Source: Hysterangium stoloniferum (Eukaryota; Basidiomycota; Agaricomycetes; Hysterangiales; Hysterangiaceae). Taken from it: a stretch of DNA of 64,000 bases. Of this stretch, positions 2,565 through 50,402 are shown in pieces (within the stretch, counting starts at the first letter, position 1; each line of letters starts with the position of its first letter). Under the pieces are notes generated by a model that was not told the DNA's origin, did not search any database, and saw nothing but the letters and a program-made list of their open reading frames with translations. A program made the position numbers and the translations under genes. The stretch is from positions 186,001-250,000 of the forward strand of contig WHVD01000075.1 in the NCBI GenBank assembly GCA_015178975.1. The letters are read 5' to 3'.

Positions 2565-3008
2565 ACACATATCTATATCTTACCTCAAGTCCCTATCATT
2601 TGAGCTAGTTTCGTTTAGGGTATGAACTTGTAGCCTTGTATGTAGACTCAGTTTGTACTAGTCTGCAGTTAACAGATTTCAAGAAATGTGTCAAATTTGC
2701 CCTGGTTAATGATATGAATTATTCTAGCTTGCCAGACTCAAATCTGCGCTGCATGCCAGTGTTATGGCGCTGTGACATTTTCTCCGTTGCAAGAATTTAT
2801 AACTCTGTACATACATATAGGTAACCTATGGAAGATACATAGACAGCTTTGAGACAGCTTGAATGGCATCAAAAGTAAAGAAATTCCATATTCTCGAATA
2901 TCGCTCGTCAGAGTGCAGTGTAACTCGATACCGACTAGACACATCACACTCCTCACGGTTTTGTTTCCAAACAGCTACGAAAGTAATAAAAACTAAATGT
3001 ATGCCTAC
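2565..3008 (-). repeat. Unit A, distal flank
   Basis: Reverse-complement copy of the conserved flank found at 19075-19510 (after F-box B) and 49755-50215 (after F-box D), for example the segment ending TGTAGGCATACATTTAG when read on the minus strand. It belongs to unit A. No gene. Confidence 0.75.
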
Positions 3009-4030
3009 AGGTTAACTGCCAAACCTTGATGACGATGATCACAATTCTGGATGTGGCTCCCCGAAACGCAATTGCAGTAAGTATTCATAGACTAGCAAGT
3101 AAGAAAGCCTGTGAGATAAAACTTTGATTTACTTTCTTTTCATTTTCCATATTTCGTAAAATTTTCTTGCAGGACCGAGGATGCATATAGCACATTGACA
3201 ATGGTCGACAATAATGCAGTATTGTCCTCTCATTGCGGTACGATACTTTATATCCAATCCAGGTAAATATACAACCTCGTGATTTAAAATTCAACACGAA
3301 TCATTCCAAAACCGCAAATGAACGCCCACCATACCTCCCAGCAGGGTGGCGATGGCATTCACACTTAGTCTTCATATGATATCGGGGATCATTAAAGTGC
3401 AGGAGAGGGAATACGGATAATTCTCCGGACGGGAGGCTGTGAGAGGTGATCTGGTGAGTGAGGGATGTGGGGTATGGGATGGGGTATGGGGTATGGGGTA
3501 TTAGATACATATTATGTTAGTAATCAAGTCTTCACATAAACCGAGATCGCGAACCGCGATTGAACCTACAATGACGAATGTATGCGCATATATGCACATA
3601 TATTATAACGCCATAAGGGGAGCTAACTCCTTATTTCTCCTTAATGATGCAATGGACTAGAAACTTCGAATATCTAAATTTCTCCTTTTTATTCTCCTCA
3701 AGACTCCCCTAAATAATTACAAAGTAAATAAAAGAACATGAAATTCGCCATGTACCTCAGTGAAAGTCATTCACTCACTCACTGAGGTATATGCGCAGTC
3801 ATTTATTCTTATTCTATTAACTTACAAAACATCTTATAGATTCGTGTTTAGGTATTATAGTATAAAGTGAAAGTCATTCACTCACTCACTGAGATTCGTG
3901 TTTAGACTCAAAATCCTTCCGAATTCTTGTCTCCTACTCAACGTATTAGCTATGGTTAAAGCAGGACTGGCGCACGAGAAAATGATTCCAGATGGACTGA
4001 AATGAGCGGCGAATTGATGGAATGCCGTAC
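3009..4030 (+). repeat. Inverted internal segment of unit A
   Basis: Plus-strand copy of the sequence that follows F-box B (18299 to about 19073) and F-box D (about 48993-49755), running from GGTTAACTGCCAAACC to GATGGAATGCCG. The sequences on both sides (2565-3008 and 4031 onward) are in minus orientation, so only this 1-kb block has flipped. It contains TIR element copy 1. Confidence 0.75.
3505..3942 (+). mobile_element. TIR element (MITE) copy 1
   Basis: 438 bases between direct repeats GTATTAG (3498-3504 and 3943-3949). The uninterrupted site is visible at 49660-49675. Ends are the imperfect inverted repeats TTAGTAATCAAG and CTTGTCTCCTAC. The interior has two hairpins built on CACTCACTGAG-type palindromes. 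There is no coding capacity. Two further copies lie at 15914-16200 and 46554-46984. The superfamily is not assigned. Confidence 0.7.
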
Positions 4031-4305: not shown

Positions 4306-6026
4306 TCACTTCTCACAGTTCTTAATGTAGAAACCTGCGTATTCCTTTATGTCCGGGATAGTGACACAGGGTAAGTGAATCTCGAATCTCTCTCTGACCG
4401 CCGCCTCCTTGAGCGCCAAGTTCCACTGCTCCCGGGTCAAGGAATCAATATAGACGAGGGATGTGTGTTCCATTATTTTACTGATGAGGTATTGCGTTTG
4501 AAATAGATCACATCGCTCATTTACGACGAACTTCCCCTCCAACCGAACGAGATGGTTCAGCTTGAAGAGACAGCTGACTAGTCTATCTGCCAAGTGACAC
4601 TATAACATCGGCGTTAATATTATTGTACGTGAGCTCAATGCCTTGAAATAGACGTACTGGTTCAATAAGGGAAGAGTTGTACCACATCGCATAAGGAATA
4701 TGAAGGTGCTGGATGTGTGGGGCAGCCTCAACAAAACGTTCAAATACCTCCAAATCCATACAAAGGGCATTGAAGACACGTAATGAAGTCATTGCTTGGA
4801 GGGTGGGTAGGCATTCCGCTGAGATTGAACATTCCAAGTATTCTATTTGCTGAGCAATATCCAAGGGAAACCCGTTCCTGAAAGGGCCGACATGGGATTT
4901 GAAGCCAAGTACTAGGGAACGAAGTCGAGACAGGGTCTGTGGCTGGATGAAACCTGAGTAGTTCTTCAGAGTGCGAATTTGTAAGCGTTGGATAGTTTGG
5001 TGATTGTGGAGGAAGGTTGTGAAGGGGCTCTCTTCGTTTGGGTTGTGGAAATAGTCGCCGAATGCTGGGAATTCCGGGAATAATTTGATATCCGCTTCGA
5101 GTGTCAATTCAACCAAGGAAGGCCAATGTGCACGTTGCCAGATTACCAGAAAGTCAAAGTTGCCCGGTTTTGGCAGAAAATTTAGCTGTAGATGCTTCAA
5201 TGTTGTAAATTGGATTATCCAATCGACGAGACTATCAGATTCATGGTGCCAAGGGACATTATCGATGGTTAGGCAAAACGTCGTAATATTGCAAAATTTT
5301 CCTAACTAATTATGTAAAAGGATTTACGACAAGGTGAACAGATTATGGCAGGCTTACTGGGGAAATAGGGGGGAGATTCACAACCGTTAGTTTGTCATCA
5401 TGGATTAGAGGAAGTCCCCAGACGTCGTCCCCTAGGTCAAAATAAAATTCATCCATATCGTTTCGTTGCCCAAAGCTGTTGAACAGAGGTTCGAAGGCAT
5501 ATGCAACGGGTAGCTCGGACCCCCATCGAAAACAGCGCAGACGTGTCATATGCTTTAGGGCGTCAGCGAGCGCCAACACACTCTTCTCGTAGACCTCTCG
5601 TTTAATGGGTAGATTGAGATATTCTGGTGAGAAAGATGGGATAATATAGGGGAAGGATGTAATAGAGTTACAGTTATCAAAATCTTGACAGTATGGAATA
5701 GCTTTACAGGCGCTCCAGCTGTAGTGCTCAGACGCAACCCGCTCGTTAATTAATTCGAGTGTCCGAGTTCTCGCACCGAGATGAGGTTGAGAAGTAATCG
5801 ATTGCCATATATCGATTCGGAGAGGGTCGCACCGGATGTGGATATAGTCGAGCCACTCCGGAACGATTATGTCGTAGAAAACCTTCGATACATGTGCCAA
5901 ACTCCAGAGATCACAGTGCTTCTCGATGTGAGAGATGATCATAACGACAACTTCTACGGGACCAGTGAAAAGCGGTCGGTTGAACGCGGGGACTGCTGGT
6001 TCTGTGGATGGACATGTTACAGACAT
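4306..6026 (-). CDS. F-box/LRR-like protein, copy A
   Basis: Predicted three-exon gene: exon 1 6026-5358, intron 52 bases, exon 2 5305-4629, intron 55 bases, exon 3 4573-4306, giving 537 residues. Both introns are GT..AG and keep the frame. The ATG follows a CCCCCC run conserved in all copies. Residues 18-60 form an F-box (VEVVVMIISHIEKHCDLWSL followed by a hydrophobic HVSKVFYDIIVPEWL). The second exon carries irregular leucine-rich repeats (LKHLQLNF, LVELTLEADI, IQRLQIRTL, IEYLECSI). By family, F-box proteins bind Skp1 and recruit targets to an SCF ubiquitin ligase; the target is unknown. A TATA-like site and an AATAAA signal (reverse of 4264-4269) flank it. No break is seen. Confidence 0.82.
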
Positions 6027-6093: not shown

Positions 6094-7465
6094 CGCCTCC
6101 GAGATCCCGTATTATAACATCATTATGTAAAGGCTTCCATTAACTTGAAGCAGCCGATTTGACCCACTCAATTAGAAGGAGCGCACGAGAACTCCAAACG
6201 CTTGCCGAGAGGATGCAACATCCCACCTCAGATAACGATTTTTGGATTCTCTCAAGCTTATTATGAGCCAGGAAATACTGAAAGCCATGTAAAACCCGGA
6301 GCTGTAAGCATACTAGCAGATATGTGCTGTGGTAAAGTCCTTTGGCGACCCGAAGCAAGTGCCCATAACATAGTTACAGTTTATGGTGAAATAAACAAAA
6401 TTTGGGAAGGTTCAGGTTGTACTATTGATGACACAGCCTACCATATGTCTCGGGACATCAGGAGATAGTATGTCTGGTATAGTTCAGTGTAGCTGACATG
6501 GTAGCATGCACACTCCCTCTAAGTGGTTGTAGACAATACACATCTGAATCCGGCCAATCTACTTGTGTTCCCATCTTTCCCTGTAGATAGTCGGGTATAC
6601 TCATCCACTGCAGAGTGAAAGCTGCTATGAGAACCTTAAGGATTCAGTCCTACACACTGGCATCCGATGTCACAAGCCAAATTCCGTAATTTTACACTTT
6701 CATTGCATAGAGTAAAAGGCTGAACATCTGCGACTTTCAAGCCAGGTGTGGAGTCTATCATGGTGCCCAGTAGTGTCTGGATGATGCATCTCAAGGCTCG
6801 CAGTACTGCTATCACAAAACCGTAGATTAGCTTGATTAGCACTCCTGATTAGTATTCATTAATATTCATTCTTGACACAGGCACTTCCCGATGTCGGAGC
6901 GGGATGCGCCTAGCTTTGGGATCGGTATGTCTAAGGCATTTTCATTCTTCTTCTATACCCACGTATCCATTGGGGATTCGGTACGCGAACTGCTATTAAC
7001 TTGAACCATATGGGGATATTAGTAAGTGGGTTACTAGGTACATATGGATACATGTCTCCTATTAGTTGCAAATACTCTCTAATGAGTTAGTTGTCACCTA
7101 CAAACGGAAGTTTATTCGGTATAGGGACAGCCACGAACACTTCAAGATCCATATCTTACCTCCAGGTCCAGTCATTCCAGCCAGCTTCATTTAGGGTAAC
7201 CGGATGAGCTTTTAGCTTTCTATGCAGTCTCAGTTTTTACTAGCCCGCAGTCAACGGATTTTAAGGATGTGAATCCCATCACCTGAGACCCTGCTGGGAT
7301 AGATAGCGGACGATCATTCGCGGTTTTGAAATTATTCGTGGTGAATTTTAACTTATCAAGTTGCATGTTTGTGGGGATTGGATCCTAGAGTTGCGAGTGA
7401 TGTACCACAATGAAGGCACAATAGTGTCGACCATTATGCTCTATGCATGCTGTGAGTCCCGTTCC
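6094..7465 (-). repeat. Unit A, conserved upstream region
   Basis: Non-coding sequence homologous (reverse complement) to the region upstream of F-box C (about 32400-33270) and D (44640-46535). It includes the repeated segment around GACACAGCCTACCAT. Short open frames are not conserved between copies. It probably holds the promoter and old repeat sequence. Confidence 0.65.
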
Positions 7466-9908
7466 TAGACGTTTTGGACAGTGTGGAGAATGGGGTCTAA
7501 GACGGATACGGAGGGCTGGCAATTAGTAGAAAACACTATAAACATTCTTCTTTTGAAAGGAAGAAGGATAAACACTGCTTACGCTAACATATTTGAAAAA
7601 TCTACCACCATTGGAAAAGGAAAAGTCAACACCGAATGTCAAAAAACCTAGGATCACAAGCCACTCACCTATCAAACAACTCCTTTGCAGTCTCCCAATC
7701 CACTGACCTACTGGAAGGAATAGCGGGCGGGGCAGCGCGCGTTTTCAAGACCCTTCGGTGTGAGGTTGGAGACAGGCCTTGAGGCGAGATAATCTGTCGG
7801 GGGGAGACCGAATTCTTCGGTGGTTGCAGAGTCGGTTTCTGTTTCAAAGTCGTCTTCGTCATAGGTAGCGGCGCGTTTCAGCTTGGACTCGAAACCTTCT
7901 TCACTTGTTATTGTTGATGATGACGATGACGTTGAAGGACCGGGTTCCGAAACAACACGTCTCTTCGAGACTAAGCCGGGCAAGCATGCCCACCGGTGCA
8001 GATCGAGGGGGGAGCGTGTGTGGGTGGGGGATAAGCGGTGGAGGGAAGAGGTTATATAGCACAAGCGAGATGATGTTGTCAATCTCCAGCTCGGTGTTTT
8101 GTTTTTGTTCCTGGCACTTTCCGTCCTCCTCACGTACAACCTCCCTTCACTCCCTCTCTAGCTCTTCATCCCAAGGCACTCCCCTCCCTTTCTCCACCCA
8201 TCATCACTATCGCCATCTTCTTCGCTTTTTTCACGCACCATCTCTCCCCACGCATCGTCAATCCTGAGGCCGCACCACTACCCGCATTCTTCGTCTTCCC
8301 CCCGCCTTTCTTAAGCACTGTCAACGCTGCTGTCTCAATTTGACTCGACACAGCCCCAGCTGCCACTCCCATTAGCATCTAATTCCAGACCTGCTGCCTG
8401 GCTTCAAGCTTCCGTTGAATTCTTCCTCATGTGACGATCTGCTATACTTGTTTTAAAGAGAATAACGCCTCTGCTTCCATCATGGCGTAAGCGGTGGGTG
8501 ATTCAACTAGCGCATCCACCTCGAGTATCAAGCCAGGACAGAAAAATTGTGTAATGTCCGGGTCGCGGTTCGCTGGGAGTGATGGGTGGGGTGAGATAGA
8601 ATGATGGAGGAGTCCAAAACTCGCACATACACCCCATGCACGGCTGCGAACCCCGATACACAAGAGTTGGGAAAGAGAGGGAAAGGAAGAACATGGTACT
8701 TTCACTCCCGTGCCATTCCATCACAATCATTCTTCGATCGGTATCCACCCTCCCGGGTGTCCAGTCAGAATAGACAGACATACAGGACGAAAAGGTGAAA
8801 TAGAGGGGGTCTAACTCGGGATACAAAATGGTCGAGAGGAGTTCCCACTCGCACAAACACCTCACGTGCAGCTGCGAACCACCGATACGCGCAGATGGCA
8901 AAGAGAGGGAAAGAAAGGACAGTGTGACCACCTCCATCACATCGCCCTAATCATAGAGAAAGACAGACAGAGGACAAAGAGGCCCAATACCGGCGTTCTA
9001 ACTCGGATTGGAATAGAATGGTCGAGTATCTCATTCGTTCGCATTTGCATCTACATATCTGGAGTGCAGTTGCAAAAACCCGCGGAGTACACGCAAATTG
9101 AAACGAGGTGTAGAATTCTGGGTCTAAGGAAGCCTAGCTCGGCATGGGATGGTCAAGGGGAGGAGCCAAGGTGGGATTGTGGTTGATAGAAAGACGGGTG
9201 AATAATTAAAATTTGGGAAGAGATAGCCTGGCGATCGCGTGCGGAGTGAGAATCGTGTGTTTGAGTGGATAGTGCGGAAGTGGTGGCGGGATGGCGCGGG
9301 CTAGAAACAGTGGCACGATGGCGCTAGAGAAGGAACCGGCAAGATAGGATATGCACGAAGGGACGGACGGCAGAAGATGTTGACCGGTGGAATCGAAAGT
9401 GGGCGGCGACGAAATTGCAGTAAGTTGAAACGGGACCGAAAGGACGAGTCTGAGGCTGCATACACGCTCATCCACCCTGCACCTGAACGTGTATCTCGCC
9501 CTGCAAACACAAACACAAACAACATAGTGAGCTTCCCAATCTCTGCATCTGAATGTGCATCCAACCCACCTGTTCGCCCCCACTTCCACTCCTACCCTGC
9601 CTTAATCCAGGCGCAGGGACAATACTCTTTACACTAACACCTGGCGATTGATGACGATGTGGTTATTGATGCTTCCCCGTTTGATTCTGCCGTTGCTCCT
9701 CAGCGTGGTGCCCACCAGCAGTTTGTGCCATTCAGCCGCAATCTGTGCAGGCGCAGAGAGCAAAAAGGACCAGTCCGGGTCGCGGTCGTGGTTGTGGTTG
9801 TGATTGCGTATGCGATTGCGACTGCAAGTACGAGGGTTTGGGAGTTTTGCAATGCCAAGGTGTCGTGTGACTGATATGTTGTCGTTGTTGTCGCTTGAAG
9901 TGGGGTTG
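7466..9908 (-). pseudogene. Fungal transcription factor pseudogene, copy 1
   Basis: Reverse-complement copy of 12015-14503. It contains a Ser/Asp/Glu-rich segment (about 8000-7720) with ESKLKRAATYDEDDFETE, then the exon ending WETAKELFDR at about 7670. By homology with copy 3 this precedes the FFKY...PFLSVLNPVLHT segment typical of fungal-specific transcription factor domains. The copy stops near 7466, before the ILAISSRYL exon, so it is truncated. The upstream part (9908-9630) is Gln/His-rich, and 9180-8600 is a tandem repeat. No Zn2Cys6 cluster could be found. Not functional as it stands. Confidence 0.6.
8602..9180. repeat. Degenerate tandem repeat, about 200-base units
   Basis: Units begin near 8602, 8828 and 9020 with a GAGGAGTCC..ACTCGCACA-like motif, followed by CACGTGCAGCTGCGAACC-like sequence. 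The mirror array lies at about 12780-13340, and a further unit at 10225-10300. Unit C lacks this block. It lies inside the transcription factor segment and is not coding. Confidence 0.65.
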
Positions 9909-10574
9909 AGCTTGGTTTCGAGAGAACACATGCCTCTTCAAGACTAAGCCGATCAGGGAACCCATCGTGCAAGTAGAGAGGGGAGCGTGTGTAGATGGAG
10001 ATGATCAACGGTGGAGGAGAGTTTACATGGCACGCGCGAGGTGATTTTGGTCATCTCCAGATTGAGGTTTGTGTTTTCGTCTCTGGCAGTCCTCGTCCTC
10101 TTCACGTACAACCCTCCCTGCACTTCCTCTCATACCCCTCATCCAAAGGATCTCCTCATCACGCCCCGCTCTTTTCACGCGCTGTCCCCTTCTGCGTACC
10201 CCGATACACCCAAGTACTCAGGGTGGAATGGAATGGTCGAGGAGTCCGCACTCGCACAAATACCTCACGTACGGTTGCGAACCAGTGATTATGCAGACGA
10301 AAAAAGAGGGAAACAAGGAGATAGCGCTACCACTGCCATCCTATTCTCCGCGAACATAGATAAACATGGAAAAGGAAGGGGTCCAATACCCGTTCTAACT
10401 CGGGAAGGGTGTTCGAGGAGTGTCTTATTCCTTCGTATTTGCATCTACACATCGGTCCAGCTGCAAACCCCACGGACCAGGCGCATGTTGAAAAGAGGTG
10501 TAACATCTGCGTCTAAGAAAGTCTAACTGGGGATGGGATTTGGTTGATAGAAAGAGAGAGATGGTGGAGAGACA
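9909..10574 (-). pseudogene. Second truncated transcription factor fragment
   Basis: Read on the minus strand, 10110-9909 matches the RLSLEEV.VVSKP region of the transcription factor copies and then joins directly to the Gln-rich region of copy 1 at 9908, skipping what should lie between. The part at 10200-10540 matches the 200-base tandem unit. This is a partial tandem copy fused to copy 1. Confidence 0.5.
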
Positions 10575-11262
10575 AACACGTATTGCATAATCGACCATTT
10601 CACGGTGTACACGAAGAACGGTTGCAGATACGTCAGTAATGTGAATAGGCCAAGACAGGGATCACGCACCTTTGTCGGCCGAAACCTCCAGAAGCAGAGG
10701 GAACTTGAGGGGTGCCATTCGTAGTCGTAGTAATCCGGCAAACCGGAAATTTTGATTATTGAGCTGCCGCGGAATCTGCAGAAGTATAGGTAAAGCAATA
10801 TAAGACGTCAGATACAATAAATATTCAGGCTCAAGTCGACAGGGTACCTCAGCCTCAGCACCCTCTAGATGGGAAATACATTCTCAAGAGTAATAACCGT
10901 ACATTGGCGATGACAAGTCGTTTCTCAGGCAGACTGGAGCACAAAGAGGACGGACACGACCCCAGATACTGTAACATGCCATACAGGAATAGACATCAAG
11001 ACGAAATGTGCACGTTGGGATCATTGCACGCCGTCGCAGCTATCCTGTAGGAGCAATGATCCACGTTATACTTCGCGCTTTTGGAAGTGTGCCAACGTCC
11101 CGTTCAAATGGATGTCAGCCCGCTAGACAATCTAGCTTGCTTCAGCCGGTCTTAGTCAGGCAATGTATAACTATGCGACTCCCTCTTAACCCACTACTCC
11201 TTGAAACCCATAGGATTTTCCTATTTTCAGTTATTCATGCTCCCTTGCCCCATACTCCCCAT
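10575..11262 (+). repeat. Unit B, segment upstream of TF
   Basis: Homologous to 25600-25670 plus 26391-28363 in unit C once the insertions there are set aside; the first 90 bases also match 44240-44335 in unit D. Contains CGTCAGTAATGTGAATAGG, the empty site of the LTR at 25671. No recognisable protein. A minus-strand frame (about 10523-10798) is not conserved across copies. Confidence 0.65.
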
Positions 11263-14200
11263 ATGGATTATCAGGGAGTCAACTGGAATCCACACGTTCA
11301 ATGATTGGTCTTCGATGGGCTGGTTTCAAGTCGCACGCCGCTTTCTAAGCCCATGCTGAACTTCAGCAATACCAAGCACACCCTCCTGCCTTCACTCATC
11401 TACTCATCCCAGATGATGATGAAGATCGCTTTTCCTAGCAAACACATACTGTACCCGCAGGCTCAGATCCAAATATCGAATCCGAATCAGGCTCCAGCTG
11501 CAATTCCCTGTCTAGATACCAGCAACGGTATTGACATGAACATCTCCATAGCCTTCAATACTAGCAACAACATGTCCTTCAATACCCTATCTCACCACCT
11601 TTGACATGCCGTCCCTCACTGGACGCTGTGGGTTTGGAAGCTATGCGTTAACGACGCGCAAGTGTTAGGTTAACGCTCCGGAAATCGTGAGAGGGTTTAT
11701 GTTTGGCGCGAAGGGGTGGAGGTGAGGGGACATGGAAATCCGGAGCCGGGGACTTTATGTTTGCAGCAACAGCAGGGGCGAGAGGGCATATCCCTCACGG
11801 GATTGGCGCCAGTCTTGGGGTTGGGTGCATCGATGTCAACTGCGTATCCGCATAGCGTTTCAGGTATCGTTGGGGGCAGGTGCGAAGCAGGCGGGATCCG
11901 ACCACAGTAGTCGCAGCTATCCCTACAATCGCAATCGCAGTGTATCCAGCTCCGCAATCGAAGTCCCAGCGCCGCACCGCAACACCAACTACACGCCCAA
12001 TCTTGATCCCAATCTCAACCCCACTTCAAACAACAACGACAACATATCAGTCACACGGCACCTTGGCAAAGCTCCCAAATTCTCGCACTTGCAGTCGCAA
12101 TTCGCCTACTCAATCACAACCCCAACCACAATCGCGGCTCGGACTGGTCCTTTTGCTCTCTACGGCTGCACACATTGTGGCTGAAGGGCACAAACTGCTC
12201 CTGGGCAATACTCTCAGGCGCAACGGCAGAGTCAAGCCGAGAAACATGAACAAAATCAACAACCACATCATCATCAATCGCCAGGTGTTAGTGTAAAGAG
12301 TATTGTGCCCGCGCCTGCATTAAGGCAGGGTAGGAGTGGAAGTGGGGGCGAACAGGTGGGTTGGATGCACATTCAGATGCAGAGATTGGGAAGCTCACTA
12401 TGCACTATGTTGTTTGTGTTTGTGTTTTCAAGGGCAGATGCACGTTCAGGTGGAGGTGGATGAGCGTGTATGCAGACTCAGACTCGTCCTTTCGGTCCCG
12501 TTTCAACTTACTGCAATTTCGTCGCCGCCCACTTTCGATTCCACCAATCAACATCTTCCGCCGTCCGCCCCTTCGTGCATATCCTATCTTGCCGGTTCCT
12601 TCTCTAGCGCCATGGTGCCACTGTTTCTGGTCTGCGCCATTCCGCCACCACTTTCGCACTATCCACCCAAACACACGATTCTCATTCCGCACGCGATCCC
12701 AAGGCTATCTCTTATCAAATTTTAATTATTCATCTGTCTCTTTCTATCAACCACAATCCCACCTTGACTCCCCTTGATCATCCCATGCCGAGCTAGGCTT
12801 CCTTAGACCCAGGATTCTACACCTCGTTTCAATTTGCGTGTACTCCGCGGGTTTTTGCAACTGCACTCCAGATATGTAGATGCAAATGCGAACGAATGAG
12901 GTACTCGACCATTCTATTCCAATCCGAGTTAGAACGCGGGTATTGGGCCTCTTTGTCCTCTATGTCGGTCTTTATCTTTGATTAGGGAGGATGTGATGGG
13001 GGTGGTCACACTCTGTCCTTTCTTTCCCTCTCTTTTCCATCTGCGCGTATCGGTGGTTCGCAGCTGCACGTGAGGTGTTTGTGCGAGTGCGAACTCCTCT
13101 CGACCATTTTATATCCTGAGTTAGACCTCTCTATTTCACCTTTTCGTCCTGTATGTCTGTCTATTCTGACTGGACACCCGGGAGGGTGGATACCGATCAA
13201 AGAATGATCGTGATGGAATGGCACGGGAGTGAAAGTACCATGTTCTTTCTTTCCCTCTCTTTCCCAACTCTTGTGTATCGGGGTTCGCAGCCGCGCATGG
13301 GGTGTATGTGCGAGTTTTGGACTCCTCCATCATTCTATCTCACCCCACCCCATCACTCCCAGCGAACCGCGACCCGGACATTACACAGTTTTTCTGTCCT
13401 GGCTTGACACCCGAGAGGTGGATGCGCTAGTTGAATCACCCACCGCTTACGCCATGATGGAAGCAGAGGCGTTATTCTCTTTAAAACAAGTATGGCAGAT
13501 CGTCACATGAGGAAGAATTCAACAGAAGCTAGAAGCCGGACAGCAAGTCTGGAATTGGATACTGATGGGAGTGGCAGCAGATTAGCAGCGGGCGCTGTGT
13601 TGAGACGAATTGAGACAGCAGCGTTGATAGCGCTTAAGAAAGGAGGGGGGAAGACGCAGAATACGGCTAGTGGTGCGGCCTCCGGATTGACGATGCGTGG
13701 GGAGGAGATGGTACGTGAAAAGAGCGAAGAAGATGGCGATAGTGATGATGGGTGGAGAAAGGGAGGGGAGTGCCTTGGGATGAAGAGCTAGAGAGGGAGT
13801 GAAGGGAGGTTGTACGTGATAAGGACGGAAAGTGCCAGGAACAAAAACAAACCACCGAGCTGGAGATTGACAACATCATCTCGCTTGTGCTATATAACCT
13901 CTTCCCTCCACCGCTTATCCCCTACCTACACACGCTCCCCCTTCGATCTGCACCGATGGGTATGCTTGCGCGGCTTAGTCTCGAAGAGGTGTATGTTGTT
14001 TCGAAACCCGGTTCTTCAACGTCATCGTCATCATCAACAATAAAAAGTGAAGAAGGGTTCGAGTCCAAGCTGAAACGCGCCGCTACCCATGACGAAGACG
14101 ACTTTGAAACAGGATCCGAATCTGCAACAACCGAAGGATTCGGCCTCCCCCCAACAGATTATCGCGCCCCAAGACTTGCCTCCAACCTCGCACCGAAGGG

Positions 14201-14770
14201 CCTTGAAAACGCGCGCTGCCCCGCCCTCTATTCTTTCTAGTGGGTCAGTGGATTGGGAGACTGCAAAGGAGTTGTTTGATAGGTGAGTGGCTTGTGATCC
14301 TAGGTTTTTTGATATTCGGTGCTGACTTTTCCTTTTCTGATGGTGGTAGATTTCCAAATATGTTAGCGTAAGCAGTGTTTATCCTTCTTCCTTTCAAAAG
14401 ACGGATGTTTATAATGTTTTCTACTATATGCCAGCCCTTCGTATCCGTCTTAGACCCCGTTCCCCACACAGTCCAAAACGTCTACGAACGGGACCCGTTC
14501 CTCTGACTGTTAGTCCTTTCCCACCTCTTTTCCTTCCAGCCTTCTTTATAATACAACTCGTATAATCGCGCTAGCCCCATAGACAATTCTAGCAATCTCA
14601 TCTCGCTACCTCCCCTCCTGCCCAAGACACCACAACATCGCCATGAACTTCCCTAAATACGCAGCAGCAACAGCCTTCATCGATGGCGTGAAGAGTGTTG
14701 AGCTGGCTCAGGCGCATCTGCACATGAGTGTTCATGGTCTTCCTGCAGAGGTGGGGGGAAGATAGGGGTT
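11263..14770 (+). pseudogene. Fungal transcription factor pseudogene, copy 2
   Basis: Starts at a plausible ATG (MDYQGVNWNPHVQ), followed by an acidic IPDDDEDRFS patch and a Gln/His-rich region near 12100-12300. The fungal-specific transcription factor domain lies at the 3' end: WETAKELFDR before 14282, VLDPVLHT-like coding near 14445-14470, and from 14583 TILAISSRYLPSCPRHHNIA followed by KSVELAQAHLHMS, the usual signature of this nuclear regulator family. Introns with GTGAGT and GTAAGC donors are visible at 14282 and near 14370. Compared with copy 3, one T is missing in the FFKY exon and the third intron donor is lost. It also carries in-frame stops. No zinc cluster was found. Dead copy. Confidence 0.62.
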
Positions 14771-15911
14771 GGCTAGTGGGTTAGTCAGGCTCTTTCTTTC
14801 TTCTCTTTGCTTGCTTTCATCCTTTTCTTTGCTCCGGATTTTTCCGTTGGGATGGGAAGGTGTTTTTATTGATTGTACGTTATACCCCTTTTGGTGCTCA
14901 TTTGACTGAGTCAATGGGATGATATAGATACTTCGTCCTGAATTTGTGATACTTCTTGATAAGGAATGACGCAAGCGGTGATTGCGTAGCTCTTGTTGCG
15001 AAGTTCGTGGAAGTCCTTGCCACTCCAAAAGCTTCCATCACGAAAAGACACGCCGAAACTACACGCCAAATGCTCGCAAGAAAACTAAGGTTCGTAACTG
15101 TCACGGCGCACCCTGTGCTCCTCATCCAAAAGCAACATCAACAACAATACCTACGGGGAGATTCCCTCCTCACATGGCCCCGTACACTACCTCAACTGGC
15201 GTCCATATGACGCTGAGCTCCGACCTCGTCCAACCGCCCCACACAACCACTCACTCCTTCTCAAGCGTCCAGTTATCCGTTCCTACGCCAGATGCAGAGC
15301 AATGTCCGGACTTCTAGACTGAAATGAGTTCGGGATCTGTGACAACCGCGGTCACGGGGGTGTGTTGCATATATTCCGATGGAGCTGTGTAACGATGAGA
15401 TGCTGGCGACGTTGTATGTGGTGTCCGACCACCAGTGATTGAAAAGTGTGCTTATGCCAGGATTCAGACGACCTGGTAACGAGATGTTATCCCGTGGCCG
15501 AGAGAGTGCGCTGATTTTCGCGAGGCTTTTTGAAGTTTTGACAAATATAATAGATACTATTGTGGAAGATGAGCTAGAGATGGGTAATGTATTTCAGTCG
15601 ACACGCAGTGGGAATCGACTGAGGTATAATGTAATAGCCTTATACGTAGTTTGGGCGAACAATATCGGGAAAATATAGGACATGGTAATCGAAATGGTTG
15701 GAAGTCATGATCGGTACCCCATGACCCTGTGTTATAGTGTAACGGCCTATAGCCCTTCAATTACAACAGAAGTTTTTCCTATCTCATTTTCTTGTCTTCT
15801 TCATTTTTTATCATTTTCCCTGTCACTTTATCTACTCCGGTTCATTTAATTGTGACATAAGTTTAGATATTAGCTATGGTTAAAGCAAGACTGGCATACG
15901 AGAACATGATT
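14771..15911 (+). repeat. Unit B, region between TF and F-box
   Basis: Homologous to 30891-32090 in unit C, and from 15550 to 44338-44690 in unit D. It may include decayed 3' parts of the transcription factor (14940-15500), which recur on the minus strand at 58110-58700. The last part carries the unit landmark ATTAGCTATGGTTAAAGC at 15872. No intact gene. Confidence 0.6.
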
Positions 15912-15913
15912 CT

Positions 15914-18002: not shown

Positions 18003-19512
18003 ATTCTGTCGCCATTCATACATATACCGAGCAATAAATTGATTTTAACCCAATGCTTGACTCTTGAGCAGCCCAGTTGCGCGTTTGTTCATGGTTTCCA
18101 TTGTAATGGAAATGGGTTTGCCCCTTGTGAGGTGAATTAAAATATTTGACCCATGGACTCAGTAAGGTCGTAATCCGCCGTCTGTGAATACTTTTATGTC
18201 AGGCCTAAGCCTTCGAATTCTCTTCGCTGGCACAGCACTCTACCTGAGTCGTGACTACAGTCAGGTTAGTAGGATCACGACGGGGGTTAGATTTTACAGG
18301 TTAACTGCCAAACCTTGATGTCGATGATCACAGCTCTGGATGTAGCACCCCGGCCGTCTGAGTGCATGTCTCTATACACAGAACTGCAGTAAGAATTCAT
18401 GGACTAGGAAGTAAGCAATGACCATCTGTACCAAGCTCGAAATCAGGTCTCTAGATCTAGATAGAGGTGACCATGAGCTTCGAATAATATACTTTGATTT
18501 TGTACATTTTATTTTCTATATCAATAACCATTGCTAGGATGAGCAGAGGAATAAACAAGCAGAAGATATGCAACGATTAGTACGCCTTGTGGGATGGGGT
18601 TTTGGTTCGCTTTCTTTTCGTTTTTCATATTTCGTGTATTTTTCTTGCGGGTCCGAGCATGCATACAGTACATTGACAATGGTCGACAATAATGCAATGT
18701 TGTCCTCTCATTGCGGTACGATACTCATAAGTCTAAATCCGATCTAGGTAAGCATACAACTTTATAATTTAAAATTCAACAAGAATCATTCCAAAACTGT
18801 GAATGAACGCCCACCATCCCTCCCAGCAGGGTGGCGATAGAATTCACATACAGTCTTCATCTGATATTGGGTATCATTAAAGTGCGGGGAGAGGGAAAAC
18901 GGATAATTCTCCGGACAGGAGGCTGTGAGAGGTGATCTGGGGAGTGAAGGATATGGGGTATGGGGTATGGGTATTAGGTATTAGCTATGGTTAACGCAGG
19001 CCTGGCACACGAGAACATGATTCCAGATGGACTGAAATGAGCGGCGAATTGATGGAATGCCGTGTAGGCATACATTTAGTTCCTATTACCTGTGTAGCTG
19101 TTTGGAAACAAACCGTGAGGAGTGGGATGTGTCTAGTCGGTATCGAGTTACACTGCACTCTGACGAATGATATTCAAGAAATGGAAATGTTTTACTTTTG
19201 ATGCCATTCAAGCTGTCTCAAAGCTGTGTAATGGGTTACCTACATGTAAGTACAAAGTTATAAATTCTCCTAACCCAGAAAACCCCACAGCTCCATAACC
19301 TTTGGCTCACTGGCATGCAGCGCAGATTTGAGTCTGGTAGCCAGAATAATTCATATTATTAACCAGGTCTAATTTGACACATTTCTTGAAATCCGTTGAC
19401 TGCCGACTGGTACAAGCTGAGGCTACATACAAGGCTAAAAGTTCATCCAGTTGTCCCTGAATGCCCTACATGAAACTAGCTTGAATGATAGGGACTCGAG
19501 GTAAGATATGGA
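18003..19512 (+). repeat. Unit B, 3' flank of F-box B
   Basis: Nearly collinear with 48697-50210 after F-box D, including GGTTAACTGCCAAACC, a GGGGTATGGGGTATGG simple repeat near 18955, and ATTAGCTATGGTTAACGC, which restarts the sequence that normally lies upstream of an F-box gene. No gene. The unit therefore appears to repeat head to tail. Confidence 0.75.
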
Positions 19513-19517
19513 TACAT

Positions 19518-19765: not shown

Positions 19766-19770
19766 TACAT

Positions 19771-40430: not shown

Positions 40431-40448
40431 CTTAGAGGCACAGTAAGA

Positions 40449-40473: not shown

Positions 40474-40511
40474 TAAAAGGTTTTCTGTATATACTATTCA
40501 TTTTCAAGAGC

Positions 40512-43299: not shown

Positions 43300-44337
43300 A
43301 CTGTAAGTTGAAGCCAAGCTCCACTACATTTATAGAGTTGGACCTCCCAACTAGTACAATCTCTATTGTTGGCCCCCCAATTAACTCATTTCTTATCATT
43401 GGTCCCCCCGACTTAGAGCCTCTCCCCTCTTTTAGCTTAGATCTTAACAGTATGCATGATAAGACTCATGGACTGTCTATACTGTCTGTACCAAACCCCA
43501 TCAGTCTAGACAGTACTGTACACAGTAGCACCCATCCCTGTTTTCCTGATGTTAGATCCACCCAGGTACCCATGTTGCTCACAGTGGGAGGAACCTTAAG
43601 GTGTTTATGCATGACTTTTTTTTATTTTAAGACTCCACTATATGCCATTAGAAAGATGATGTCTAGGATGAGTGTATGCAGGTAGTGCAAGTATGAGTCT
43701 GCAATGTGCTTGCATAAAAATATAAACACTAAGTGATTGTGAGTAATACCTCAAATAAAGGACTTGAAATGAAGGAAGCAAGTAATCATAGACATAAACC
43801 ACGAAGGCCATCTCTAAATGCGCATAGACCTTCGCATCAGAGCCACTCATTGATGCCCTTGTAGTTGAGTGTGGCGTAGGGGTGGTACCCAGCTCAGCCG
43901 TGACTCCCAGGGCAAGCACAAGTGAGGCCTTCAGCGTTTCATTTCGGGGCGTGATGTGTTTGCATTGTCGCTCAATTCAATGTCAACTATGCCCACTCCA
44001 ACACAAAAGAAGTCCTGCCCATCTTCAGTGAACCATTCGTGAACAACGTGTGCGCTAATAGGTTCGTATGCTTCGTAGCTAAGTGAGAGTGCACCTGATG
44101 CGAGTAGCGGTAGCCTGAAGTTTTGTATCAACACAAAGACATACTGAACGTAATGCTTCGGGAGCAGTTACCTCTGCAAATTACCCATGGGGCGAGCGAA
44201 CCAGGTGTGTAGAAGCAGGCACCTACACGGAGAGACAATCACATATTGCATAACGGACCACTTCATGGTCTACACGAACAACAGTTGCAGATACATCAGT
44301 AATGTGAATAGACCAAGACAGGGATTACGTACTATTG
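43300..44337. repeat. Unit D, leading block
   Basis: Matches 23240-24109 plus 25360-25670 of unit C, and holds the empty sites of the LTR element at 24110 and of the solo LTR at 25671. Minus-strand frames at 43931-44134 (HVVHEWFTEDGQDFF) and 43638-43919 are partly shared with the other copy, but I do not recognise them. At about 44338 the sequence jumps straight to the 15553 equivalent, so the whole transcription factor part is deleted. Confidence 0.65.
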
Positions 44338-46539
44338 TGGAAGATGAGCTAGAGATGGGTAATGTATTTCAGTTGACACACCGTGAGAATCGACTGAGGC
44401 ATAATGTAATAGCCTTATACGTAGTTTGGGCCAATATCGAGAAAATATACATAGGACATGGTAATCAAAATGGTTGGAAGTCACAATCAGTACCCCATGA
44501 CCCTGTGTTATAGTGTAACGGCCTGTAGCCCTTCAATTACAGAAGTTTTTCCTATCTCATTTTCTTGTCTTCTTGATTTTTTATCATTTTCCCTGTCACT
44601 TTATCTACTCCGGTTCATTTAATTGTGACATAAGTTTAGATATTAGTTATGGTTAAAGCAAGGCTGGCATATGAGAACATGATTCCAGATGGACTGAAAT
44701 GAGCAGCGAATTGATGGAATGCCATGCAGGCATACATTTAGTTTTTATTACTTGTGTAGCTGTTTGGAAACAAAAGCATGAGGAGTGGGATGTGATTAGT
44801 CAGTATCGAGTTACACTGCACTCCAACAAACAGTATTCAAGATGGAATTTTTTACTTTGATTCAAGGGGTCTCAACGCTGTCTTATAGAATACCTATGTT
44901 ATAAACTCTTGCAACTGAGAAACCATTGCAGTGCCATAACTCCTAGCTCATTAGCATGCAGCGCAGATTTGAGTGTGGCAAAGCCAGAATAACTCATATT
45001 ATTAACCAGGTCTAATTTGGCACATTTCTTGAAATATGTTGACTAAAGACTAGTACAAAAGTTCATCTGGTTATCCCTGAATGCCCTAAATGAAACTAGC
45101 TTGAATGATAGGGACTCAAGGTAGGATATGGATATAGAACAGCTGAATCACAGGAAAAAAGTCAAACCATATCATACCATACAGAATAATGAAGATACCA
45201 CTTACACATTCACATATATACTACACTAAACCTGGCAACATCATCAATTTCCATATCCCATTCCAACGTCCATATCTGTTTCGAGGATCAATAATAACCG
45301 GGAATGCTAATCAAAATTCGCCCCAGATGATCTACGATCTTGTGATAGCAGGAATGCCAAAGAAAGATACATATCCTAATCTATCTGGAGACTACTGGAT
45401 ACCATTGCAGACTCTATTCTATGCCTGGCTTAAAAATTGCATGGGTTCCATGTTTTACTCCATGGCAGGGACAGTGTAAAATCAAGGAATTTGGCTTGTG
45501 ATATCTACAACCACCTAAGAGTAGTGTGCATGTTACAGTGTCAGCGACACTAAACTATATACCAGACATACTACCTCCTGATGTCACAACCTAAAAGGCC
45601 CAATATCATAGTTTAGCGGAGCTACATGGTAGGCTGTGTCATAAATGGTACCCGCTGAACATTCTCAAATCTATTTTTATTTCACCCATAAACTGTAATT
45701 ATGTTATGGTGCTCCGCATACATCTGTTAGCATGCTTATGGCTCCGGCTTGTGCATGGCGTTCAGTATTTCCTGGCTCATAATAAGCCTGAGAGGATCCG
45801 TATACCCCCACTTACACATAGTGATCCCAAAGCTGGGCGCATCCCGCTCCGACCATCGGGAAAAGAATGAATACTAATCAGAACTATACCAGACATACTA
45901 TCTCCTGATGTCCTGAGACATATGGTAGGCTGTGTCATCAATGGTACACCCTGAACATGCTAAGTTTACAGTGGTGCTGTTCCTAGACCGTATGAATTTC
46001 TGTTTGTCTGAGTAGTGACAGTTAACTCGTTGTAAATAGATGAGGACTATAGTACAAGTCTCATCTATATATACCTAGTAACCCACTTACTAATCCCCGT
46101 ATGGTTCGAGTCCTTGCTGCTCGTTCACCGAATTCCCAAAAGTTAATGGAACATTCCCAAATTCTTTTTAATTTCACTATAAACTGTAACTATGTTATGG
46201 GCACTTGCTCCGGCTCGCCAAAGGACTTTACCACAGCATATATCTGCTGGCATGCTTACACCTCCGGGTTGTGCATGACTTTCAGTCTTTCCTGGCTCAT
46301 AATAAGCTTGAGAGAATCCAAAAATTGTCATTTGAAGGTGAAGATGTTGCATCCTCTGGGCAAGCTTTTGGAGTTCTCGTGCACTCCTTCTAATTGAGTG
46401 AGATCAAATCGGCTGACCACCTTTGCTTGAAGCCTTTACATAATCATGTTATAATACGGGATCTCGGAGGCGATATGTATTCGCTGTGCAGCCGCTTGCC
46501 ATTCGCAGGATTGTTTACTAGCACGTTGTTTTGCCCCCC
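44338..46539 (+). repeat. Unit D, region upstream of F-box
   Basis: Matches 15553-15911 and 31740-33330. It contains a partial internal duplication: the GGTAGGCTGTGTCATCAATGGTAC segment occurs at about 45630 and again at about 45920. No gene. Confidence 0.6.
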
Positions 46540-48696
46540 ATGTCTGTAACATGTTGTTAGTAATCAAGTCTTCGCATAAACCGAAATCGGAATCAAACCT
46601 ACAATGATGAGTATATGTGCATATATGCGCATATATTGAGGTGCCATTAGGAGGGGAGGAACTCCTAATCACGAATTTCTCTTTAATGATGCAATCAACT
46701 AGAAACTTCGAGTATCTAAATTTCCCCTATTTACTCTCCTAATATCTCTCCTAAAATAATTAGAAATTAGATAAAAAGTCGCGATATTTCGCCATATACC
46801 TCAGTGGAGTTTACTCATTCACTCACTGAGGTATATGCACAATCATTCATTATTACTCTATTACTCATTAAAATGTCTTGTAGCTTCATAAACAGGTACT
46901 ATAATACATAGTGGAGTTTACTCATTGACTCACTGAGCTTCGTAAACAGACTCAATCCTTCCGAAATCTTGTCTACTAATTAACACATGTCCATCCACAG
47001 AACCAGCAGTCCCCGCGTGCAACCGACCGCTTGTCACTCATCCCGAAGAAGTTGTCGTTATGATCATCTCTCACATCGAGGATCGTTGTGATCTCATGAG
47101 TTTGGCACAAGTATCGGAGGATTTCCACTGCATAATCATTCCGGAGTGGCTCAACTATATCCACATCTGGTGTGACCCTCTCCGAATCGACATATGGCAA
47201 TATATTGCTTCTAATCCTCATCTCGCTGCGAGAATTCGGTCACTCGAATTAATCAACGAGTTGGTTGCGACTGAGGAGTACAGCTGGAGCGCCTGTAGAA
47301 CTATTCCAAGCTTTAACGATATTGAGCACTGTAAATCTATCACATACTTCCCCTCTATTATCCCATCTTTCTCACCAGTGTTTTTCAATCCATCCAGTAC
47401 ACGAGAGGCCTACAAGGAGAGTATATTAGCGCTCGCTGACGCCGTAAAGCATATGACACATCTACATTGTTTTCGATGGGGTTTCGGGCTACCCGTTGGA
47501 TATGCCTTCAAATCTCTGTTAAAAAGCTTTGGGCAACGACACGATATGGATGAATTCTATTTTGACTTAGGGAACCACAACTTGGAAGAATTTCTATCCG
47601 AAGAGGAAATAACGGTGCCTGTGATTCTTCCCCCTATTTCCCCAGTAAGCCTACCATAATCTGTTCATTTTGTTGTAAATCCTTATACATAATCAGTTAG
47701 GAAAATTTCCCAATATTACGACGTTTTGCCTAACGATCAATAATGTCCCTTGGCACCACGAATCTGATAGTCTCGTCAATTGGATAATCCAATTTAAAAC
47801 ATTGAAGCATCTACAGCTACGTTTTAAGCCAAAACCGGACAACTTTGACTTTTTGGTTATCTGGCAGCGTGCATATTGGCCTTCCTTGGTTGAATTAACA
47901 CTCGAAGAGGATATCAAATTATTCCCAGATGATAATTCCGCATTGGGCGACTCAAGCGAAGAGAGCCCCTTCACAACCTTCCTCCAAAATCATCAAACTA
48001 TCCAACGTTTACAGATTCGCACTCTGAACAACTACTCCCATTTCATCCAGCTACAAACCCTGACTCAACTTCATTCCCTGGTATTTGGCTTCATCTCCCA
48101 TGTTGGGCCTTTCGGCAATGGGTTTTCCTTGGATATTGCCCAGCAAATAGAATACTTGGAATGTTCAATCTCACCGGAATGCCTACCCACTCTCCAAGCA
48201 ATGACTTCATTACGTGTCTTCAATGCCCTTTATATGGATTTGGAGGTATTCAAACATTTTGTTGAGGCCGCCCCACCCATCCAACACCTTCATATTCCTT
48301 ACGCGATGTGGAACAACCCTGCCCGTATTGAACCAGTACGTCTACTTCAAGGCATTGAGCTCACGTATAATAATATTGACCTCGATGTTATAGCGTCACT
48401 TGGCAGATACAGTAGTCAGCTGTCTCTTCAAGCTGAAGGATCTTGTTCGGTTGGAGGGGGAGTTCGTCATCATGGATGAGGAATGTGATCTATTTCACAC
48501 GCAATACCTCATCAATAAAATAATGGAACATGAATCCCTCGTCTATATTGATTCTTTGACCCGGGAGCAGTGGAACTTGGCGCTCAAGGAGGCCGCCCTC
48601 AGAGAGAGATTCGAGATTCACTTACCCTGTGTCACTCTCCCAGACATACGAGAATACGCAGGTTTCTACATTAAGAACTGTGAGATGCAATACTAA
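46540..48696 (+). pseudogene. F-box/LRR-like gene D, split by TIR element
   Basis: The ATG at 46540 and the next four codons match copy B, then a 431-base TIR element intervenes and coding resumes at 46985. The rest is well preserved: exon 1 to 47644, intron 52 bases, exon 2 47697-48364, intron 55 bases, exon 3 48420-48696, all in frame. The first ATG after the element in the right frame is at 47060, which would remove the first half of the F-box helix (LPEEVVV). Protein similarity to copy B is very high (exon 3 differs at only a few residues). Probably a recent loss of function, unless the element is spliced out. Confidence 0.8.
46554..46984 (+). mobile_element. TIR element (MITE) copy 3
   Basis: 431 bases between ACATG at 46549-46553 and 46985-46989; the empty site is in copy B at 16286-16292. 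Ends are imperfect inverted repeats (TTAGTAATCAAG and CTTGTCTACTAA). A perfect 13-base hairpin, ATATACCTCAGTG with CACTGAGGTATAT, lies at 46794-46836. Confidence 0.82.
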
Positions 48697-50402
48697 ATTC
48701 TGTCGCCATTCATACATATACCGAGCAATAAATTGATTTTAACCCAATGCTTGACTCTTGAGCAGCCCAGTTGCGCGTTTGTTCATGGTTTCCATTGTAA
48801 TGGAAATGGGTTTGCCCCTTGTGAGGTGAATTAAAATATTTGACCCATGGACTCAGTAAGGTCGTAATCTGCCATCTGTGAATACTTTTATCTCAGACCT
48901 AAGCCTTCAAATTCTCTTCACTGGCACAGCACTCTACCTGAGTCGTGACTACAGTCAGGTTAGTAGGATCACGACGGGGGTTAGATTTTACAGGTTAACT
49001 GCCAAACCTTGATGTCGATGATCACAGCTCTGGAGTAGCACCCCGGCCGTCTGAGTGCATGTCTCTATACACAGAATTGCAGTAAGCATTCATTGACTAA
49101 GAAGTAAACAAGGACCATCTGTACCAAGCTCGAAATCAGGTCTCTGGATCTAGATAGAGGTGACCGTGAGCTTCGAATAATATACTTTGATTCTGTACAT
49201 TTTTATTTTCTATATCAATTGCCATTGCTAGGATGAGCAGAAGAATAAACAAGCAGAAGATATGCAACGATTAGTACACCTTGTGAGATAAAGCTTTGAT
49301 TCACTTTCTTTTCGTTTTCCATATTTCGTGTATTTTTCTTGTGGGTCCAAGCATGCATACAGCACATTGACAATGGTCGACAATATTGCAGTGTTGTCCT
49401 CTCGTTGCGGTACGATACCCATAAGTCTAAATCCGATCTAGGTAAGCATACAACTTTATAATTTAAAATTCAACAAGAATCATTCCAAAACTGCGAATGA
49501 ACGCCCACCATCCCTCCCAGCAGGGTGGCGATAGAATTCACATACAGTCTTCATATGATATTGGGGATCATTAAAGCATGGAGAGAGGGAAAACGGATAA
49601 TTCCCCAGACGGGAGGCTGTGAGAGGTGATCTGGGGAGTGAAGGGTATGGGGTATGGGGTATGGGTATTAGCTATGGTTAACGCAGGCCTGGCACACGAG
49701 AACATGATTCCAGATGGACTGAAATGAGCGGCGAATTGATGGAATGCCGTGTAGGCATACATTTCGTCCCTATTACTTGCGTAGCTGTTTGGAAACAAAA
49801 CCATGAGGAGTGGGATGTGTCTAGTCGGTATCGAGTTACACTGGACTCTGATTAATGATATTCGAGAATATGGAAATGTTTTACTTTTGATGCCATTCAA
49901 GCTGTCTCAAAGCTGTGTAATGGGTTACCTACATGGGTTACCTACATGTAAGTACAGAATCATAAATTCTCCTAACCCAGAAAACCCCACAGCTCCATAA
50001 CCTTTGGCTCACTGGCATGCAGCGCAGATTTGAGTCTGGTAGCCAGAATAATTCATATTATTAACCAGGTCTAATTTGACACATTTCTTGAAATCCGTTG
50101 ACTGCAGACTAGTACAAGCTGAGGCTACATACAAGGCTAAAAGTTCATCCGGTTATCCCTGAATGCCCTACATGAAACTAGCTCGAATGATAGGGACTCG
50201 AGGTAAGATATGGATACATGGACAATAGGACAGTTTAATCACGGGAAAAAGAGTCAAACCACATCATACCTTACAGAATAATGAACATGGCAAAGACCTA
50301 TACTTACTTACACTTTCACATATATACTACAGTGAACCATTTCAAAGCTGGCCACATCATCAATTTCCATATCCCATTCTGACCTCTGTATCTGTTTTGA
50401 GG
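48697..50402 (+). repeat. Unit D, 3' flank
   Basis: Nearly identical to 18003-19945 without the 19518 LTR. AATAAA lies about 30 bases after the stop. It ends abruptly at 50402, where Mutator-like sequence starts within TGTTTTGAGGAT. Confidence 0.75.

What the first reader, a model, noticed from the sequence alone, without database searches (positions are those of the whole stretch)
2565..50402. A transcription factor plus F-box cassette repeated as a unit
In units A, B and C a broken fungal transcription factor gene lies about 1.5-2.5 kb upstream of an F-box/LRR gene on the same strand, with the same non-coding landmarks between and after them. Unit D has the same order with the TF part deleted at 44338. 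The TF copies are all dead while four F-box copies stay open, so the F-box gene may be the part under selection, or the part that benefits from being carried. No known transposon class is recognised as the carrier. The unit could be a plain segmental duplication or an undescribed gene-carrying element.
Basis: partly seen in the sequence, partly recalled or inferred. Interest (0 to 1): 0.72.

Follow-up and report, generated by a model that had tools for sequence, protein, structure and literature searches.

The report
Fast-evolving duplicated fungal F-box genes
A fungal chromosome region carries many copies of a block made of a dead regulator gene and a live F-box gene; the block seems to spread by ordinary DNA duplication rather than as a transposon, while the F-box genes stay open and change their protein unusually fast, as genes in an arms race do.

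Summary
The cassette is real. TF remnant, flank L, three-exon F-box gene, flank L' recurs as five units in the window (one with only a TF tail, one with its TF just outside) and at 14 places on six contigs of the 111-Mb genome, TF and F-box on one strand in all 14. I find no element with fixed ends: right borders differ between copies, the TF is cut at three points, each shared by a group of copies, and contig C215 joins one group's TF junction to another group's F-box gene. No KDZ transposase lies near. Best reading: segmental and tandem duplication with ectopic recombination. The TF's DNA-binding domain was not found on the amplified contigs. The F-box gene is the selected part: 21 of 23 modelled copies keep an uninterrupted spliced frame, against 1.7 of 21 in a neutral simulation; 14-18% of codons evolve at dN/dS 3.5-5.3 (likelihood-ratio 91-209; six null simulations near 0). 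Of 15 pairs, 3 show replacement excess, others purifying selection. Probably an SCF substrate-receptor family under diversifying selection; target unknown.

The parts
4306..6026 (-). F-box/LRR gene copy W1: exons 5358-6026, 4658-5305, 4306-4599
   Evidence: gene model and exon coordinates
7147..7451 (-). flank L pieces between TF and F-box, unit 1
   Evidence: matches to 18656-18849 and 19385-19513
7456..9923 (-). TF-derived dead DNA, unit 1
   Evidence: 91.5% to 12001-14494; no long TF frame
2570..4028 (-). flank L' after F-box W1, partly inverted and holding LTR-like piece S at 3515-3942
10784..15912 (+). TF-derived dead DNA, unit 2
   Evidence: 119 genome matches on 12 contigs; remnant of the TF middle domain at 14583-14762
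16278..18002 (+). F-box/LRR gene copy W2: exons 16278-16946, 16999-17643, 17700-18002
   Evidence: F-box-like PF12937 28.5 bits (cut-off 24.3)
18656..20329 (+). flank L' after W2, with an insertion of about 248 bp at 19518-19765
27770..32086 (+). TF-derived dead DNA, unit 3
32042..32738 (+). flank L between TF and F-box, unit 3
33340..35070 (+). F-box/LRR gene copy W3: exons 33340-33996, 34049-34720, 34774-35070
44330..44685 (+). TF tail left in unit 4
   Evidence: 93% to 15555-15912
44636..45505 (+). flank L, unit 4
46555..46985 (.). solo-LTR-like insertion S (TGTTA...TAACA, CATGT duplicated) splitting exon 1 of F-box copy W4 just after its ATG at 46540
46976..48696 (+). F-box/LRR gene copy W4, cut off from its native start by S: exons 46976-47644, 47697-48335, 48394-48696
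49666..50408 (+). flank L' after W4

Best explanation
The window lies in a repeat-rich compartment of a fungal genome, probably a basidiomycete (inference from gene types). There a block, TF remnant - flank L - F-box/LRR gene - flank L', has multiplied by tandem and inverted segmental duplication and by ectopic recombination between copies; the direct repeats L and L' and the shared TF DNA offer the homology (shown: anatomy, shared junctions, differing borders, one recombinant contig; inferred: that this homology is what drives it). The TF DNA is a passenger in which I find no DNA-binding domain. The F-box gene is the functional part: selection keeps its frame open and drives amino-acid change at a subset of sites (shown statistically). 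Its product most likely acts as the substrate-receptor subunit of an SCF ubiquitin ligase whose target surface is in an arms race, for instance recognition of foreign or selfish proteins (inferred; not shown).
For: Cassette repeated with the same order and strand, 14 places on 6 contigs. Three TF/F-box junction types; one is shared by four contigs at 92.9-99.5% over 612-647 bp in the five of six pairs compared, and C215 is a recombinant. Borders vary. The Zn2Cys6 region of the solitary TF relative on C1 matches 4 places, none on the amplified contigs. 21 of 23 F-box models open; neutral simulation mean 1.7, maximum 5 of 21 in 200 runs. M8 against M7 209 and against M8a 191 on 21 copies, 91 on 11 close copies with gap columns and their neighbours removed; six null simulations gave -0.5 to 0.1. 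Exon-wise trees share their well-supported groups. L042/L044 52 nonsynonymous:6 synonymous (p 0.013), L052/L053 26:0 (p 0.0015), L044/L040 106.8:19.2 (p 0.025), while L037/L038, L048/L049 and L047/L048 have ratios 0.13-0.34 (15 pairs, p uncorrected).
Against: F-box hits are weak (3 of 5 window copies over the Pfam cut-off) and the LRR match is far below its cut-off. The F-box stretch is not more conserved than exons 2 and 3 (mean dN/dS 1.18, 1.16, 1.21), unlike the Caenorhabditis F-box genes of PMC8665587 (passages). Fast sites are not enriched at the exposed strand positions of LRR-like motifs (p 0.33 and 0.17). 12 of 15 pairs show no significant nonsynonymous excess. The one-ratio dN/dS is not significantly above 1 (log-likelihoods -10234.7 and -10236.0). 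Gene conversion between copies could inflate site tests. No expression data.
Confidence: 0.72

Rival explanations
1. An undescribed gene-carrying mobile element: the TF-L-F-box-L' unit moves as cargo between defined ends.
For: Copies on several contigs with the same internal order; direct repeats L and L' flank the F-box gene; six loci share one border at the equivalent of 50276.
Against: Copy-specific right borders: W4 at 50408, W2 at 20329, six loci at 50276, L003 at 50176, L005 at 49935 equivalents (some may be later insertions or deletions). TF cut at three places. KDZ on C528 only at 69305-69852 and none on C44, C133, C174, C215, C305; 16 further window frames scanned gave no transposase in Pfam, but other transposase profiles were not searched genome-wide. 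L' of unit 2 runs on into F-box upstream sequence, as in a tandem array.
Confidence: 0.08
2. The F-box genes are neutrally drifting duplicates; open frames only reflect youth.
For: Average dN/dS near 1 (M0 1.10 on 21 copies; 1.00 on 11); 12 of 15 pairs without significant excess.
Against: Neutral simulation on the observed tree leaves a mean of 1.7 and at most 5 of 21 frames open; codon rates strongly heterogeneous; several pairs show purifying selection.
Confidence: 0.1
3. F-box antidotes of killer (toxin-antidote) elements, like the rapidly evolving F-box KSS proteins of Caenorhabditis tropicalis (PMC12680543, abstract and passages).
For: Fast evolution and duplication as a module with a neighbour gene resemble that case, where F-box proteins degrade the partner toxin.
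Against: The neighbour here is a dead TF. Beyond the F-box exons, the six other window frames of 150 aa or more match nothing in Pfam and lie in TF DNA, beside it or in a minisatellite. Small or unrecognised partner genes are not excluded.
Confidence: 0.08
4. Part of the copy number is an assembly effect: allelic or redundant contigs (for example C44 and C215) counted twice.
For: C44a and C215 F-box copies differ at 13 sites; the flanks L004, L006 and L013 are 98.5-99% alike.
Against: Eight F-box matches lie on the single contig C528 between 190 and 308 kb, and window copies such as W1, W2 and W3 differ clearly (dS 0.14-0.30).
Confidence: 0.15

Closest known systems
Lineage-specific, clustered F-box gene families of Caenorhabditis (PMC8665587, abstract and passages; PMC5041008, passages)
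   Same: Clusters from tandem duplication, species-level expansion, dN/dS above 1 in parts of the C-terminal region, suspected role in recognising foreign proteins.
   Different: Here in a fungus, LRR-like F-box proteins with two short phase-0 introns, the F-box stretch not especially conserved, and duplication together with a decayed transcription-factor segment.
KSS F-box antidotes of Caenorhabditis tropicalis (PMC12680543, abstract and passages)
   Same: Rapidly evolving F-box genes duplicated as a module with a neighbour.
   Different: The neighbour here is a pseudogene without detectable DNA-binding domain; no toxin partner seen.
F-box genes of mushroom-forming fungi (PMC7567395, passages: 210 in Flammulina filiformis; PMC8893723, one passage)
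   Same: Large F-box repertoires in Agaricomycetes.
   Different: The passages I saw treat expression in fruiting bodies and do not describe clusters under diversifying selection.
KDZ transposons (Pfam PF18758)
   Same: Present in this genome, 71 matches; recalled, from no call, as carriers of host genes in mushrooms.
   Different: On C528 only one place, about 120 kb from the nearest cassette; none on the other five cassette contigs.

Membership tests
Gene-carrying transposable element | constant end sequences across copies | tested here: not met
   right borders at several different positions, three TF truncation points
Gene-carrying transposable element | target-site duplication at unit ends | tested here: inconclusive
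   no fixed end to place it on; duplications were seen only for smaller insertions inside units or between them
Gene-carrying transposable element | transposase or recombinase in the unit | tested here: inconclusive
   no KDZ match near cassettes; 16 non-F-box window frames (6 of 150 aa or more, 10 of the shorter ones) match no transposase in Pfam; other transposase families were not searched genome-wide, and a non-autonomous element would not need one
Segmental/tandem duplication cluster | copies in tandem and inverted order with shared internal junctions and lineage-specific borders | tested here: met
SCF F-box/LRR substrate receptor | F-box domain | tested here: met
   PF12937 over cut-off in 3 of 5 window copies (28.5, 26.5, 26.5 bits; the others 21.2 and 20.5; cut-off 24.3)
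SCF F-box/LRR substrate receptor | leucine-rich repeats | tested here: inconclusive
   LRR_14 about 16 bits in 2 of 5 exon-2 frames, cut-off 40; LRR-like strand motifs by regular expression only; no PDB sequence match for exon 2
SCF F-box/LRR substrate receptor | binding to SKP1 | not testable with these tools
   needs a bench test
F-box family under diversifying selection | site class with dN/dS above 1, frames preserved | tested here: met
Functional Zn2Cys6 transcription factor (TF part) | Zn2Cys6 cluster | tested here: not met
   4 matches genome-wide, none on the amplified contigs; fragments of the middle domain remain. A strongly diverged cluster could escape this search
Toxin-antidote element with F-box antidote | linked toxin gene | tested here: inconclusive
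   no recognisable second gene among window frames of 150 aa or more; short or unrecognised genes not excluded

The most novel reading that the evidence does not exclude
A fungal intracellular recognition repertoire: twenty or more F-box/LRR receptors, generated by recombination between duplicated cassettes in one genome compartment and diversified by selection, that mark foreign or selfish proteins for destruction - a ubiquitin-based counterpart of NLR clusters - with a decayed transcription-factor segment serving as the shared recombination track that also multiplies a second, unrelated gene family.
Probability: 0.25. Interest if true: 0.8.

Novelty: new variant of a known kind. Interest (0 to 1): 0.5.

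Why it matters
Diversifying selection on clustered F-box families is known from nematodes (PMC8665587, passages) and, as cited in PMC12680543 (passages), plants. None of the 51 rows listed by my seven answered paper searches (some rows repeat; longer result lists were cut) is titled as such a report in a fungus, and the library lacks most subscription journals. If it holds, it gives fungi a candidate ubiquitin-based recognition system that strain comparisons can test, and a clear case of a dead gene travelling with a selected neighbour.

Tried and rejected
Mobile element with fixed ends: rejected on differing borders. Apparent constant end at 50407/50408: mostly an effect of the query copy being cut there; a query from unit 2 runs further. 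KDZ as carrier: rejected. Subtelomeric origin: 2 of 11 exact (TTAGGG)4 matches in the genome (8 distinct tracts) lie on C528, but they are short and sit inside a local inverted repeat, so no claim. Fast-evolving sites at exposed LRR-strand positions: tested, not supported; the raised values a few residues after the strand were seen only afterwards and not tested. A first count of TF exon substitutions had one misaligned exon and was replaced. A three-start M8 run timed out after its first optimum; that optimum was re-evaluated, so other optima were not explored for the 21-copy set. No Rfam match at gathering score and no tRNA in the window.
Full report
WHERE IT IS. The window is C528:186001-250000 of a 111.1-Mb, 554-contig genome. 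Gene types (F-box-like, Zn2Cys6/Fungal_trans, KDZ transposase) point to a fungus, probably a basidiomycete; no call names the species.

THE OBSERVATION. A self-comparison gives five units. TF-derived DNA of higher G+C is followed on the same strand by an F-box gene: unit 1 (-) TF 7456-9923, gene 6026-4306; unit 2 (+) TF 10784-15912, gene 16278-18002; unit 3 (+) TF 27770-32086, gene 33340-35070; unit 4 (+) TF tail 44330-44685 only, gene 46976-48696; unit 5 (-) gene 62983-61274, its TF outside the window. The landmark occurs 6 times, 0.04 expected.

ANATOMY. A flank L (about 0.9-1.5 kb, with the landmark near its start) lies between TF and F-box in units 1, 3 and 4, and a diverged copy L' (about 75% alike) lies after the F-box gene in units 1, 2 and 4. 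In unit 2, L' runs on into sequence that matches the upstream region of unit 3's F-box gene (20168-20297 to 32792-32927, 73%). A tandem array of [L - F-box] units would leave this, so L and L' are better read as array remnants than as termini of an element (inference).

THE F-BOX GENE. Three exons with two short phase-0 introns (52-60 and 53-58 nt). I modelled 23 copies: five in the window, L033, L037-L050 and L052-L054. L051 and a degenerate stretch at 42487-42974 were seen but not modelled; other shorter or broken matches among the 68 were not fetched. 21 of 23 have an uninterrupted spliced frame of about 510-545 aa; L041 and L046 are broken. An ATG at the expected place was seen in 18 of the 21; W4 is cut off from its ATG by a solo-LTR-like insertion, and L052 and L053 show none in the 20-25 codons before the model start. 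W4 is therefore probably not functional as it stands.

SELECTION. Among the pairs printed (dS 0.02-1.2), dN/dS runs from 0.18 to 1.63 and lies mostly between 0.5 and 1.2. My codon likelihood code reproduces IQ-TREE's one-ratio likelihood (-10234.68 in both); dN/dS 1.10, not significantly different from 1. M7 -10150.4, M8a -10141.3, M8 -10045.7 with 18% of codons at 3.5. On 11 close copies without gap columns or their neighbours (485 codons): M7 -4538.4, M8a -4538.4, M8 -4492.8, 14% at 5.3. Six data sets simulated under M8a gave statistics from -0.5 to 0.1; the negative values mean that the optimiser stopped slightly short there, so the null values are a little too low, which does not bridge the gap to 91. 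A neutral, substitution-only simulation left on average 1.7 and at most 5 of 21 frames open in 200 runs. Exon-wise trees share the main groups. Among 15 pairs, three have replacement excess at p below 0.05: L052/L053 (26:0, p 0.0015), L042/L044 (52:6, p 0.013), L044/L040 (p 0.025). The other 12 do not, and L037/L038, L048/L049 and L047/L048 have ratios of 0.13-0.34. These p values are one-sided and uncorrected. Fast sites (posterior above 0.95) are spread over the three exons: 6 of 43 in the F-box stretch, 18 of 161 in the rest of exon 1, 10 of 212 in exon 2, 5 of 94 in exon 3. They are not significantly enriched at exposed LRR-strand positions (p 0.33; exon 2 alone 0.17).

THE TF PART. The nearest solitary relative with a Zn2Cys6 exon is on C1 (L034): Zn_clus 18.9 bits (cut-off 21), Fungal_trans pieces 18.0 and 28.9 bits (cut-off 23). 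Its Zn2Cys6 region matches 4 places genome-wide, none on the amplified contigs; the window copies keep only short pieces of the middle domain. TF DNA gives 119 matches on 12 of 554 contigs. So the amplified TF probably lost its DNA-binding part before or during amplification. In another array, L035 and L036 differ at 11 of 183 synonymous and 14 of 618 nonsynonymous sites in five exon pieces (ratio 0.38, p 0.014), while L036 carries an internal stop; some constraint may have lasted there.

SPREAD AND BORDERS. From I count 14 places where TF DNA precedes an F-box gene on the same strand: six on C528 (one with a TF tail only), two each on C44, C133 and C174, one each on C215 and C305 - six contigs. 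F-box matches without a TF match nearby: C528:117135, 131222, 169592, 257704, 305750; C273:12728; C133:14098; and diverged ones on C1, C13, C24, C44:125922 and C168. F-box DNA gives 80 matches on 12 contigs, the flank 52 on 13; the tool calls such counts lower bounds. Three TF/F-box junction types exist: TF running to about 15870-15912 equivalent (units 2-5, C174b, C528:298 kb), cut near 14494-14526 (unit 1, C44a, two on C133), cut near 13926 (C174a, C305, C44b, C215). The last type is 92.9-99.5% identical over 612-647 bp in the five of six pairs compared, so whole cassettes were copied. C215 has that junction but an F-box gene almost identical to C44a's, of the second type: a recombinant. Right-hand borders differ: W4 at 50408, W2 at 20329, six loci at the equivalent of 50276, L003 at 50176, L005 at 49935; some may be later insertions or deletions. 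Six loci overlap the window itself (L001, L002, L022, L025, L027, L028) and are not independent.

CARRIER. KDZ has 71 matches in the genome, on C528 only near 69 kb and none on the other five cassette contigs. Beyond the F-box exons, the six window frames of 150 aa or more and ten shorter ones match no transposase in Pfam; not every shorter frame was scanned. Smaller elements with duplicated targets are inserted in the region: a 1.25-kb element with 316-bp terminal repeats at 24110-25359 and the solo-LTR-like piece in W4. They interrupt but do not carry the unit.

A SECOND PARTNER. The same TF DNA recurs about every 10.7 kb together with an unrelated multi-exon gene 'Y' (three frames, no Pfam match; DNA search) at both ends of C528 and on C237, C174, C162, C362, C84 and C336; C369 has Y and a TF piece. 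Diverged Y relatives lie on C367, C24 and C11, where one search lists no TF. Five Y copies show long open pieces in the same order. The TF segment is thus a common neighbour of two amplified genes, which fits a shared recombination track (inference).

LITERATURE. Seen: abstract and passages of PMC12680543 and PMC8665587, passages of PMC5041008 and PMC7567395, one passage of PMC8893723. For all other papers I saw only the listings (51 rows; one search found none); none is titled as a report of diversifying selection in a fungal F-box cluster, but lists were cut and the library is partial.

VERDICT. A real, co-duplicated cassette; ordinary duplication and recombination as the most likely carrier; a living, fast-evolving F-box family as the reason it is worth attention. 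What the F-box proteins target is unknown; an arms-race receptor role is inference.

Noticed in passing
39638-41248: Long imperfect palindrome (arms 39638-40342 and 40529-41248, 79%); related stretches at 25671-26179, 37538-38120, 53261-54005, 55760-56543. Copies at C528:275300 and 313400 hold a (TTAGGG)4 tract between inverted arms; these are 2 of 11 exact matches (8 distinct tracts) in the genome.
   Followed up: partly
24110-25359: Small element with 316-bp terminal direct repeats (94%), TGTTA...TAACA ends and AAGAA duplicated; empty site within 43467-44305.
   Followed up: partly
L031:5971-7924 (in C528:378001-388000): Unrelated multi-exon gene Y, no Pfam match, in roughly 10.7-kb tandem units with TF DNA on seven contigs (eight with C369); relatives on C367, C24, C11.
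   Followed up: partly
51590-52020: Minisatellite with periods of 18 to 110 bp.
   Followed up: no
19518-19765: Insertion of about 248 bp in flank L' of unit 2, absent at 50214; relative at 57466-57690.
   Followed up: no
L052 and L053 (C24:1072400-1079800): Inverted pair of diverged F-box relatives about 5 kb apart with 26 nonsynonymous and 0 synonymous differences.
   Followed up: partly
L036:2-673: KDZ transposase fragment at C528:69 kb beside a TF copy.
   Followed up: no
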